A stretch of DNA of 53,502 nucleotides from NCBI GenBank assembly GCA_031276815.1, contig JAISMJ010000101.1, positions 1 to 53,502 of the forward strand, read 5' to 3'. The stretch's first letter is position 1; the number at the start of each line of letters is the position of its first letter. This DNA comes from Treponema sp. Its GTDB lineage: Bacteria > Spirochaetota > Spirochaetia > Treponematales > Breznakiellaceae. Shown here one piece after another: positions 24,466 to 35,137 of the stretch. Under the pieces are notes generated by a model. That model searched no databases and was not told the DNA's origin. It saw only the letters and a program-made list of their open reading frames with translations. The translations under genes were made by a program, and so were the position numbers.

Positions 24466-25398
24466 ATGAATAATTCCGTAGAAAGGCTCATTCAAGAAGC
24501 CTATGACAGTTTGAAGGCATCCAATGCGACATCAGCCGCCGTAGCATTAGACGAAGCGATAAAAGTTGATTATGAACATCCTGAAGTAGTGTATGCCTTA
24601 AAATGCTTGAACTGGTGGGCAGAGAGAATAAAACGAACTGATGAGCTTTCAAGCGCATACGAAAAAGGGGAGTTTATTTTGTCGCAATGGAAGCCGTTTT
24701 ATGTTTTTCTGGATCGGATTGGACAGAATTACGAGAGGTGCCTTTATGCGATACGACGTTTTGTTTTTGCGACCGCTCTGTATCATTTTCAGGAAGTTGT
24801 AGAAAAAGAAAAAAACCAACAGGAGCCAGTGCTATTACTTCAGATCGGGCGTTGTTACAAGGGATGCGGCAATTATGAATTGGCGATTAAGTTCCTTGAA
24901 CAGGCGGCCCACTTTAAGCGGGATGATGCGGAAACCATCTCTGAACTTGCCGATGTAAACGCCTTACTTGAAGAGACCCGTTATGCGAAGGTGTTGTTTA
25001 GAGAAGCCTTCTTTCTTGATCCTCAAGCCATTGATTTGCGGTTCATGGAATCAGAACTCATCATACGTTTACGTGATAAGGTAAAAAGTTTAGGCTATAG
25101 TACTATAGAAGCGCCGGAATGGATACCGATTTACGGAAATTTGCTGGGAGTGTTTTCGGTTAAACGTGAATTGAAACAAATAGAATTAGGAAGGTTGAAG
25201 CAGTCTATTTTTTCTTTGGAAAATGACTTAAAAAACCGTCCTGAAAACATCAGGTTTTCAAAACCTCGTCTTATTAACCGATATTTTTGGCTCATAGATC
25301 ACTACGAGAATGTGCGGGAAGAATCCGCGCTAATAGAAGAAACCATGCTTAAAATAAGGGTCATTGATCCTGCTATTTACGAACTGTATCGAAATTAA
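24466..25398 (+). CDS. TPR-like helical protein upstream of the GreA fusion
   Basis: 310 aa, no signal peptide. Residues ~5-45 (ERLIQEAYDSLKASNATSAAVALDEAIKVDYEHPEVVYALKCL) and ~110-190 (LLQIGRCYKGCGNYELAIKFLEQAAHFKRDD; FREAFFLDPQAIDLR) fit degenerate tetratricopeptide repeats, which mediate protein contacts. No catalytic motif is visible. The stop is 11 bases before the GreA-fusion start, which has its own AAGGAG site, so the two are co-transcribed and may act together. Confidence 0.75.
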   Translation: MNNSVERLIQEAYDSLKASNATSAAVALDEAIKVDYEHPEVVYALKCLNWWAERIKRTDELSSAYEKGEFILSQWKPFYVFLDRIGQNYERCLYAIRRFVFATALYHFQEVVEKEKNQQEPVLLLQIGRCYKGCGNYELAIKFLEQAAHFKRDDAETISELADVNALLEETRYAKVLFREAFFLDPQAIDLRFMESELIIRLRDKVKSLGYSTIEAPEWIPIYGNLLGVFSVKRELKQIELGRLKQSIFSLENDLKNRPENIRFSKPRLINRYFWLIDHYENVREESALIEETMLKIRVIDPAIYELYRN

Positions 25399-32846: not shown

Positions 32847-34844
32847 TTATTCCGCACAGAGCGCAGCAAGCGCGTCCGAAGTGAAACCAAGATACGCCGC
32901 GACTTTTTCAGCAGGACCCGATTCACCAAAACGATCTATGGCCAGAATGGTTTTTGGTTCTGTCCATCGTTCCCAGCCTGCGCGAACGCCTGCTTCCGCG
33001 ACAACGATTTTCACACAGCCACATTCACAGTGTCCGCCCGGAATGATCGTATCCTGAAGCTCCGTGGGTTGTTCCTCAAATAATTCACGGCTTATCATGG
33101 ACACAACCTGTACTTTCTTCTTACTCTTTGCCTCCGTTTTCTTTGCAGCATCAAGTGCTAAACCCACTTCAGAACCGGTAGCGATGATAATCACATTTGG
33201 GTTATCTTCCTTTTTGACAACGTAAGCGCCGGTACGAATGGTATCCCGCCAATCCGGATCGGCCTTCTCAAACACCGTGAGATTCTGCCGAGAAAGAGCG
33301 AGTACTGTAGGACCCGCAGTATTTTCCAGAGCCATTTCCCACGCAACTGCGGTTTCTTCCGCATCGGCAGGGCGCAGTACGCGTACATTGGGAATAATGC
33401 GGAGAGACGCAAGATGTTCTATTGGTTGATGAGTGGGACCGTCCTCACCCACATAAATGGAATCGTGGGTAAGCACATAGATGACGGGCTGTTTCATCAG
33501 GGCGGAAAGCCGGAGCGCGGGGCGCAGATAGTCGGCAAAAACCATAAATGTAGCGCAGTACGCCCGCAATCCTCCGTGCAGCGTAATGCCATTCGAGATT
33601 GCCGCCATAGCGAACTCACGGATACCAAAGTGAATGTAGCGTCCCGCCCTGTTTGCAACTGAGTAGTCCGCTGCATTTGGCACAGTCGCGGGCAAACCGA
33701 CCGCGTTCGGTCCTTTAAGGTCAGCCGAACCACCCACAAGGAAAGGATTGGCTGCAGCAATCGCCCCAAGCGCCTTGTTGCCAGCAGTGCGAGTAGCGAG
33801 CTTGTCTCCGGCGTTAAAAACAGGAAGCACTGCCGGAAGAGAGGTATCTGAAAAAAATAAATCCCATTCGGCTTTTTTTTCAGGATTTTCTTTTGCCCAC
33901 GCCTCAAAACTCGCTTCCCATGTGGTGCGCATTTTTTCCCACTCATCCTGTTTTTTCTTGAAATAGGCAACGGCTTCCGGCGCAATAAAGAAGTCTCCGT
34001 GTATGCCTAACGCTGCTTTTGCCGCCGCTAGTTCTTCGGTGCCGAGTGGAGCTCCGTGAACATCAGCGGTATTTTGCTTGTGGGGCGCTCCCTTCCCGAT
34101 GATGGATTTCAGTATGATGATGCTCGGCTTTGCTGTTTCTGCCTTTGCTTTTTCAATCAAAGAAGCAATCTCCGCAAAGTCATACATGGAGCCGTTCAGT
34201 ACCTGCCAGCCGTAGGCTTCGTAGCGTTTAGCGACGTCTTCGGTAAAAGTCAAATCTGTACTTCCGTCTATGGTGATTTTGTTGGAATCGTAGAACACGA
34301 TGAGCTTTCCAAGCTGAAAATGACCGGCAAAGGAGCTTGCCTCTGCGGAAACGCCTTCCATAAGACAACCGTCGCCCACAAGCACATAGGTGTAATGATC
34401 CACAACCGCATAGTTATCGGTGTTGAATCGCGCCGCCAACATGGTTTCCGCTACTGCCATGCCAACGGCAGTAGCGAAACCCTGACCCAACGGACCGGTT
34501 GTGGTTTCTATACCGCCCGCAAGTCCGTATTCGGGATGACCTGCGGCACGGGAGCCTATCTGCCTGAAGGTTTTAATATCCTCAAGGCTGATGTCCTTGT
34601 AGCCTGCAAGGTGTAAAAGACCGTATAAGAACAGAGAACCGTGTCCAGCGGACAAGACAAAACGATCACGGTTGCGCCATGAAGGACACGAGGGATCATG
34701 CTTGAGTATATCCCCATAGAGAACGGCGCCTAATTCGGCGGCTCCAAGTGGAAGACCAGGATGTCCTGAATTCGCTTTTTGAATGGCATCCATGCTTAAC
34801 GAGCGTACGCTTAATGCGATTTTTTCTAACGCTTTTGTATCCAT
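32847..34844 (-). CDS. tkt: Transketolase
   Basis: Thiamine-diphosphate enzyme of the pentose phosphate pathway, 665 aa, normal length. N-terminal AIQKANSGHPGLPLGAAELGAVLYG; ThDP-binding GDGCLMEGVSAEASSFAGHFQLGKLIVFYDSNKI; middle domain FGIREFAMAAISNGITLHGGLRAYCATFMVFADY and LTHDSIYVGEDGPTHQPIEHLASLR; C-terminal VVSMISRELFEEQ. It moves two-carbon units between sugar phosphates. A GAGGT ribosome-binding site precedes the ATG. A single CRISPR-type repeat lies 19 bases upstream of the start codon in the leader. Confidence 0.97.
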   Translation of the reverse strand: MDTKALEKIALSVRSLSMDAIQKANSGHPGLPLGAAELGAVLYGDILKHDPSCPSWRNRDRFVLSAGHGSLFLYGLLHLAGYKDISLEDIKTFRQIGSRAAGHPEYGLAGGIETTTGPLGQGFATAVGMAVAETMLAARFNTDNYAVVDHYTYVLVGDGCLMEGVSAEASSFAGHFQLGKLIVFYDSNKITIDGSTDLTFTEDVAKRYEAYGWQVLNGSMYDFAEIASLIEKAKAETAKPSIIILKSIIGKGAPHKQNTADVHGAPLGTEELAAAKAALGIHGDFFIAPEAVAYFKKKQDEWEKMRTTWEASFEAWAKENPEKKAEWDLFFSDTSLPAVLPVFNAGDKLATRTAGNKALGAIAAANPFLVGGSADLKGPNAVGLPATVPNAADYSVANRAGRYIHFGIREFAMAAISNGITLHGGLRAYCATFMVFADYLRPALRLSALMKQPVIYVLTHDSIYVGEDGPTHQPIEHLASLRIIPNVRVLRPADAEETAVAWEMALENTAGPTVLALSRQNLTVFEKADPDWRDTIRTGAYVVKKEDNPNVIIIATGSEVGLALDAAKKTEAKSKKKVQVVSMISRELFEEQPTELQDTIIPGGHCECGCVKIVVAEAGVRAGWERWTEPKTILAIDRFGESGPAEKVAAYLGFTSDALAALCAE

Positions 34845-34863
34845 AACAGTACCTCTTTACAAT

Positions 34864-34896
34864 ATTTCAATCCACACGCGCCACGAAGAGCGCGAC
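34864..34896 (-). CRISPR. Solitary type I-C-like CRISPR repeat in the tkt leader
   Basis: Read on the minus strand the 33-nt element starts GTCGCGCTCTTCG, continues TGGCGCG and ends TGTGGATTGAAAT. It has a perfect CGCGC/GCGCG stem and the GATTGAAAT 3' handle of type I-C repeats. Only one copy is present, no second repeat, spacer series or cas gene is seen in the window. It could be a relic, or a stray repeat used as a leader structure for tkt. Confidence 0.65.
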
Positions 34897-35137
34897 TATT
34901 ATTATTTAAGCCAATCTCATATCGGTTTTGAGACGGACTTGATATCATAAGTTTACATTTTAATATTCTTTTACGCAATATGGCAATGGAAGAAGTGCAA
35001 AATATGGGATCTCCGTCTTATCTCCTCAATTAGACTGCTTACCTCTAATCCGCGTATTAGCTTTTTTCCTTTTATATTTTGCAAGTAAATCGGCGGGTCT
35101 CCCGATAGTTTGTATTTTTGCTTTTTGTATGCACCTC
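34897..35137. other. Gene-free A+T-rich stretch between tkt and nadE
   Basis: No gene. A TCTCA/TGAGA inverted pair lies near 34910-34931. A plus-strand terminator-like hairpin is at 35045-35067 although no plus-strand gene lies upstream of it, hinting that something was lost here. Confidence 0.45.
35045..35067 (+). terminator. Terminator-like hairpin without an upstream gene
   Basis: CTAAT (35045-35049) pairs with ATTAG (35056-35060), followed by CTTTTTT on the plus strand. The nearest upstream gene, tkt, runs the other way. Confidence 0.4.

What the first reader, a model, noticed from the sequence alone, without database searches (positions are those of the whole stretch)
34864..34896. Single type I-C-like CRISPR repeat in the leader of tkt
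A 33-nt sequence has the stem and the GATTGAAAT handle of type I-C repeats, yet stands alone. On the tkt strand it ends 19 nt before the ATG, just before the ribosome-binding site. If the cell has a I-C system, its Cas5 endonuclease could cut the tkt leader at this repeat, tying transketolase expression to CRISPR activity. Alternatively it is the last trace of a lost array; the plus-strand terminator at 35045 with no gene before it fits a deletion.
Basis: partly seen in the sequence, partly recalled or inferred. Interest (0 to 1): 0.75.

Follow-up and report, generated by a model that had tools for sequence, protein, structure and literature searches.

The report
Stray CRISPR repeat before tkt
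A 33-letter sequence shaped like one unit of a bacterial immune memory (a type I-C CRISPR repeat) has been inserted just before the start of the transketolase gene of a Treponema-like bacterium that shows no CRISPR machinery, and it resembles a family of stray repeats, not described in the papers I could search, that is scattered through related genomes, often in the same spot just ahead of genes.

Summary
Observation confirmed: 34864-34896 (minus strand) is a lone 33-nt type I-C-like repeat, 19 nt before the tkt ATG. Aligned with tkt leaders of congeners, the gap in three of them is exactly these 33 nt: a clean insertion, not the stump of an array. The genome (80.6% complete) shows no Cas1, Cas5d or Cas7c, nor do 10 of its 11 congeners, so Cas5d cutting of this leader is unsupported. 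Following the repeat outward gave the real finding: four Treponema genera carry many scattered single I-C-like repeats. Many form the 3' end of a sharply bounded, hairpin-rich element of about 175 nt; others are little more than the ~32-nt unit. Of 110 copies chosen without regard to position, 38 lie in sense within 100 nt before a start codon and 4 in antisense. Ten of 15 copy-rich genomes show no Cas5d, so copies persist without it. Best reading: the tkt repeat is a minimal copy of this interspersed family, placed in a 5' UTR, where it acts here as a passive leader hairpin. Homology of this one copy is only moderate (21.5 bits; genome-wide E 0.027). Mechanism of spread and function are inferred.

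The parts
34864..34896 (-). lone type I-C-like repeat unit, 33 nt, GTCGCGCTCTTCGTGGCGCGTGTGGATTGAAAT; inserted unit
   Evidence: sequence; covariance model 21.5 bits; exact 33-column gap in three congeners
34889..34894 (-). 5' arm of the repeat hairpin (CGCGCT)
   Evidence: fold
34877..34882 (-). 3' arm of the repeat hairpin (GGCGCG)
   Evidence: fold
34864..34874 (-). 11 nt that correspond to the I-C crRNA 5' handle (TGGATTGAAAT)
   Evidence: sequence; handle length from own knowledge of type I-C
34852..34857 (-). ribosome-binding site AAGAGG of tkt
   Evidence: sequence; conserved in congeners
32847..34844 (-). tkt, transketolase, 665 aa
   Evidence: ORF; 87-88% identical homologues in congeners
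34908..34940 (-). leader hairpin upstream of the inserted repeat; a hairpin at this place is also found in most congeners without the repeat
   Evidence: alignment and folds
34957..34986 (-). probable tkt promoter (TTGCCA-18-TAAAAT by scan; a TATAAACT-like box is conserved in congeners)
   Evidence: scan; alignment

Best explanation
The tkt repeat is a minimal copy of an interspersed DNA family of Treponema-like bacteria whose 3' terminal domain is a type I-C CRISPR repeat. The full element is about 175 nt, rich in hairpins, and ends in GTCGCG...CGCGTGGATTGAAAC followed by an A-rich stretch; many copies are shortened at the 5' side, some down to the ~32-nt unit. Shown: the 33-nt unit is a precise insertion in the tkt leader; the family exists in four genera; copies near gene starts lie in sense orientation just ahead of the ribosome-binding site far more often than in antisense. 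Inferred: the family spread as a small non-autonomous mobile element, and copies between promoter and ribosome-binding site in sense orientation are kept because the RNA hairpin plus A-rich linker is tolerated or mildly useful as a leader module (mRNA stability, ribosome loading). In hosts with a I-C system the hairpin should also be a Cas5d substrate; in this genome, where no I-C genes were found, it most likely acts only as a passive leader hairpin.
For: Exact 33-nt insertion against three congeners, longer gap in two more, promoter, leader hairpin and RBS conserved. Scattered single copies in G005, G014, G007 and many family genomes, with a reversed-pattern control near zero. GTDB scan: 29 of 31 stretches are unclustered copies in Treponema MAGs. 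Element of fixed 3' end and about 175 nt in three genera. Sense against antisense before starts 38:4, p 6e-8. Start-codon distances of 13-36 nt are typical, tkt has 19. Five gene pairs carry copies in two species, one pair across genera. Repeat-only copies are commoner in leaders, 11/38 against 7/69.
Against: The tkt copy scores only 21.5 bits (genome-wide E 0.027), has two extra bases and none of the upstream element (nhmmer E 0.05 in the window). The own genome holds at most one other weak copy (C5:14177, 22.8 bits), so the family is not amplified in it. No transposase association, no target-site duplication shown. Copies are related by descent and ORF calls were simple, so the p values are optimistic. 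G066, G065 and G075 show weaker leader preference.
Confidence: 0.6

Rival explanations
1. Cas5d cleavage site: the I-C endoribonuclease cuts the tkt mRNA leader at this repeat and so ties transketolase expression to CRISPR activity.
For: Stem, handle and sense placement fit a I-C substrate. G005, G076, G077, G148 and G149 have Cas5d together with scattered copies; co-occurrence 5/15 against 15/185, p 0.009, not corrected for relatedness.
Against: No Cas5d, Cas7c or Cas1 in this genome nor in 10 of 11 congeners. Ten of 15 copy-rich genomes have no Cas5d match, one of them 90% complete. The tkt copy has two extra bases at the stem base, which may spoil cleavage.
Confidence: 0.08
2. RNA decoy: the element carries a I-C repeat to titrate Cas5d/Cas7 and protect itself or other mobile DNA, like the phage RNA anti-CRISPRs (Racr); the tkt copy is a side product.
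For: Solitary I-C repeats can inhibit I-C (RacrIC1, PMC10651486). Copies co-occur with Cas5d more than expected.
Against: The 31-mer has no match in 2.9 million viral contigs; most copies lie in chromosomal intergenic DNA next to housekeeping-like genes; many hosts lack Cas5d.
Confidence: 0.12
3. Chance resemblance: a random leader hairpin next to GTGGATTGAAAT, unrelated to CRISPR repeats or to the scattered family.
Against: Joint expectation with a stem about 0.01 per genome; insertion boundaries coincide with the repeat unit; position before the RBS is that of the family.
Confidence: 0.17
4. Last trace of a lost type I-C array at the tkt locus.
For: A single repeat is what a collapsed array could leave.
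Against: No second repeat nearby, no array at tkt in relatives, promoter, leader hairpin and RBS intact on both sides of a one-unit insertion; no cas genes.
Confidence: 0.03

Closest known systems
Type I-C CRISPR repeats (related example: the G076 array repeat GTCGCGCCCCGTGCGGGCGCGTGGATTGAAAC)
   Same: Starts with GTCGC, GC-rich hairpin, ends with TGGATTGAAAY; same length within one base
   Different: Single, not in an array, no leader, no cas genes found in this genome
Solitary repeat units / RNA anti-CRISPRs (Racr; PMC10651486)
   Same: Lone CRISPR-like repeat downstream of a promoter and away from cas genes; a I-C example (RacrIC1) exists
   Different: Those are listed in phages, prophages and plasmids; here chromosomal, many copies per genome in relatives, often in 5' UTRs, and hosts often lack the matching Cas system
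REP elements, GTAG- and CGTC-tagged (PMC3733652)
   Same: Short palindromic, extragenic, scattered repeats; CGTC families are reported in Spirochaetes and lack a known transposase
   Different: No GTAG tag, CGTC only occasionally; unit is a CRISPR repeat; no link to RAYT genes
MITE-like non-autonomous elements
   Same: Small, multi-copy, non-coding, hairpin-rich, sharp ends; short inverted ends AATCC/GGATT can pair
   Different: No parent transposase and no target-site duplication found; one end is a CRISPR repeat

Membership tests
Type I-C CRISPR array | repeat with GTCGC start, stem and TGGATTGAAAY handle | tested here: met
   two extra bases at the stem base
Type I-C CRISPR array | several copies separated by spacers of regular length | tested here: not met
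   one copy in the genome, no second model hit nearby
Type I-C CRISPR array | I-C cas genes in the genome | tested here: not met
   no Cas1, Cas5d, Cas7c in G000, 80.6% complete
Scattered I-C-like repeat family of Treponema (this report) | terminal repeat unit recognised by the family model | tested here: met
   21.5 bits, E 0.0006 in the window, 0.027 in the genome; moderate
Scattered I-C-like repeat family of Treponema (this report) | sense orientation shortly before RBS and start codon (common, not universal) | tested here: met
   19 nt before the ATG; family 38 sense to 4 antisense
Scattered I-C-like repeat family of Treponema (this report) | upstream hairpin modules of the ~175-nt element | tested here: not met
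   only the terminal unit matches in the window; 18 of 107 other copies also extend less than 50 nt
Solitary repeat unit / Racr | carried by a phage, prophage or plasmid | tested here: not met
   tkt leader between tkt and nadE; family 31-mer absent from viral contigs
Solitary repeat unit / Racr | inhibits a CRISPR-Cas system | not testable with these tools
   needs an interference assay
REP element with RAYT | GTAG or CGTC tag at the hairpin foot | tested here: inconclusive
   family consensus TGTC or GGTC, CGTC in some copies
REP element with RAYT | RAYT gene flanked by the repeats | tested here: not met
   one Y1 transposase gene near a weak copy only
MITE | terminal inverted repeats and target-site duplication | tested here: inconclusive
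   AATCC/GGATT ends pair; no duplication demonstrated

The most novel reading that the evidence does not exclude
A chromosomal interspersed element that ends in a type I-C CRISPR repeat has seeded the mRNA leaders of many genes in these treponemes, so that in I-C hosts Cas5d processes or is titrated by host mRNAs (a CRISPR-linked regulon or a resident RNA decoy); the tkt repeat is such a copy, kept as a leader module in a lineage without the Cas system.
Probability: 0.18. Interest if true: 0.9.

Novelty: new variant of a known kind. Interest (0 to 1): 0.6.

Why it matters
If right, CRISPR repeats are not confined to arrays and phage decoys: a type I-C repeat forms the end of a chromosomal element that has multiplied and lies, strand-specifically, in front of housekeeping genes. 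That gives a natural test of how CRISPR repeats move outside arrays, of whether Cas5d cuts host mRNAs, and of links between repeats and the ends of mobile elements. It also warns that a lone I-C repeat in such a genome need not be the remnant of an array.

Tried and rejected
Array remnant: rejected by repeat-free leaders in congeners. Scattered element as CRISPR leader plus first repeat: the leader of the G076 array is not like the element. RAYT mobilisation: only one Y1 gene near a weak copy. Viral origin: no match of the 31-mer in viral contigs. Known RNA family: no Rfam match for the tkt leader or for loci with full elements. Second window hit at 25141-25183 (E 0.016): no ribosome-binding-site arrangement seen, judged chance. 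Stem covariation in the 17 seed copies: not beyond shuffles. Literature searches found papers on solitary repeat units and REPs but none on scattered chromosomal I-C repeats; only open-access papers are held.

Full report
What is there. The minus strand of 34896-34864 reads GTCGCGCTCTTCGTGGCGCGTGTGGATTGAAAT and ends 19 nt before the tkt ATG, directly ahead of AAAGAGG. It folds into a short hairpin whose stability is not unusual. GTGGATTGAAAY occurs once in the 2.37 Mb genome. That 12-mer alone is expected about 0.6 times per genome, with an adjacent perfect 5-bp stem about 0.01 times.

It is an insertion. The 200 nt before tkt in 29 relatives show no such repeat. A MAFFT alignment of the six closest leaders (tkt 87-88% identical) keeps a promoter box (TATAAACTT-like), a leader hairpin region and TGTAAAGAGG. 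In three congeners the only large gap after the promoter is exactly the 33 columns of the repeat; in two others it is longer. A collapsed array does not fit this.

No CRISPR machinery was found here. Cas7c, Cas5d and Cas1 gave no match in G000. Of its 11 congeners only G005 has Cas5d and Cas1; its contig C225 shows a Cas3-like ORF, Cas5d and a Cas8c-like ORF before the contig ends (Cas3 and Cas8c named by eye). The own genome is 80.6% complete, so one missing contig could hide an operon.

The repeat resembles a scattered family. The exact 12-mer occurs 17 times on 14 contigs of G005 and 6 times on 6 contigs of G014, with a reversed control of zero. A covariance model of 17 such copies (window copy not included) found 41 copies in G005, 24 in G014 and 3 in G007 at E<=0.1. 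Over 200 family genomes the genomes with many scattered copies fall in four genera, g1, g4, g11 and g58; other genomes with many hits have arrays and Cas5d, or were not read in detail. The 31-mer form was found in GTDB genomes in 29 stretches from 8 Treponema MAGs, never clustered, and otherwise only in an array of one Melioribacteraceae genome. From my own knowledge these MAG codes look like termite-gut samples; the records say only Treponema sp.

Element anatomy. BLAST extents show a fixed 3' end and left ends near -31, -42 to -60, -86 to -99 and -168 to -194. Eighteen long copies from g1, g4, g11 and g58 align over about 175 nt: AATAAARAATCCCCGCC...GGCGGGGTATTGAAG...CGGGGGAACAAATCCCCCG...CGCCCCAAGGGGCGGGGTATTAAACCCCACGGTAAGGGCGCTG, then the I-C repeat and AAAYAA. 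Seven predicted pairs have changes on both sides, but the covariation term is small; the ends AATCC and GGATT can pair. Neither loci with the element nor the tkt leader match Rfam. In G076 a genuine I-C array has the repeat GTCGCGCCCCGTGCGGGCGCGTGGATTGAAAC and an unlike leader.

Placement. In 110 copies chosen without regard to position, 38 have a start codon within 100 nt downstream on the same strand and 4 face a start codon in antisense (p 6e-8); with pattern-selected copies added the numbers are 49 and 4. The commonest distance from GAAAC to the start codon is 13-36 nt; tkt has 19. Downstream genes look like rpmB, flgK, efp, nagB, mutL and hslV (by eye; only an HU-like DNA-binding protein was checked). 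Five gene pairs carry copies in two species, once across genera. Repeat-only copies are commoner in leaders (11/38 against 7/69, p 0.017, post hoc); the whole distribution of extents differs less (p 0.08). A pattern for repeat plus ribosome-binding site plus ATG hit 50 of 200 genomes with few control hits, though some hits are arrays or coding. Caveats: ORF calls are simple, copies share ancestry, and the model was seeded with intact handles.

Relation to Cas. Scattered copies and Cas5d co-occur (5/15 against 15/185, p 0.009, not corrected for relatedness), but 10 of 15 copy-rich genomes lack a Cas5d match, among them G066 at 90% completeness. So Cas5d is not needed for the copies to persist.

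Reading. The tkt repeat is best read as a minimal member of this family, inserted in the tkt 5' UTR. Membership of this single copy is moderate (21.5 bits, genome-wide E 0.027) and rests also on the exact insertion boundaries and the typical position. How the family moves is unknown: no transposase association was found. The likeliest role here is a passive or mildly useful leader hairpin; Cas5d cutting or decoy action remain possible in I-C relatives. A solitary I-C repeat, RacrIC1, is known to inhibit I-C systems (PMC10651486), and CGTC-tagged REPs, reported in Spirochaetes among others, lack a known transposase (PMC3733652); neither describes this element as far as I read them.

Noticed in passing
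window 34908-34940 (minus): The tkt leader holds a hairpin upstream of the repeat; most congeners have a hairpin at the same place with different sequence, so it may be a tkt leader element of its own.
   Followed up: partly
L176 (G000:C5:14177-14216): The only other model hit of note in the own genome (22.8 bits) also lies between a TATAAT-like box and an RBS plus ATG.
   Followed up: partly
L173 10389-10424 (G017:C18): A scattered-type repeat lies shortly upstream of the cas3 end of a I-C operon whose array has a different stem; possible autoregulation or decoy.
   Followed up: no
L339, L342 (Melioribacteraceae CHB1): A genuine array with 38 and 3 listed matches on two contigs uses the same 31-mer form as the scattered Treponema copies.
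   Followed up: no
L290, L308, L278, L300 and others: Downstream of GAAAC many copies have an A-rich tail such as (AAAC)n, with fixed 3' ends and varied 5' ends, as in target-primed retroelements; not tested.
   Followed up: no
L279 (G075:C123): Two scattered-type repeats lie about 44 nt apart, close to a repeat-spacer-repeat arrangement.
   Followed up: no
L075 216-737 / L175 7215-7736 (G014:C11): A Y1 (IS200/RAYT-like) transposase gene lies about 1.3 kb from a weak copy; no other copy has one nearby.
   Followed up: yes
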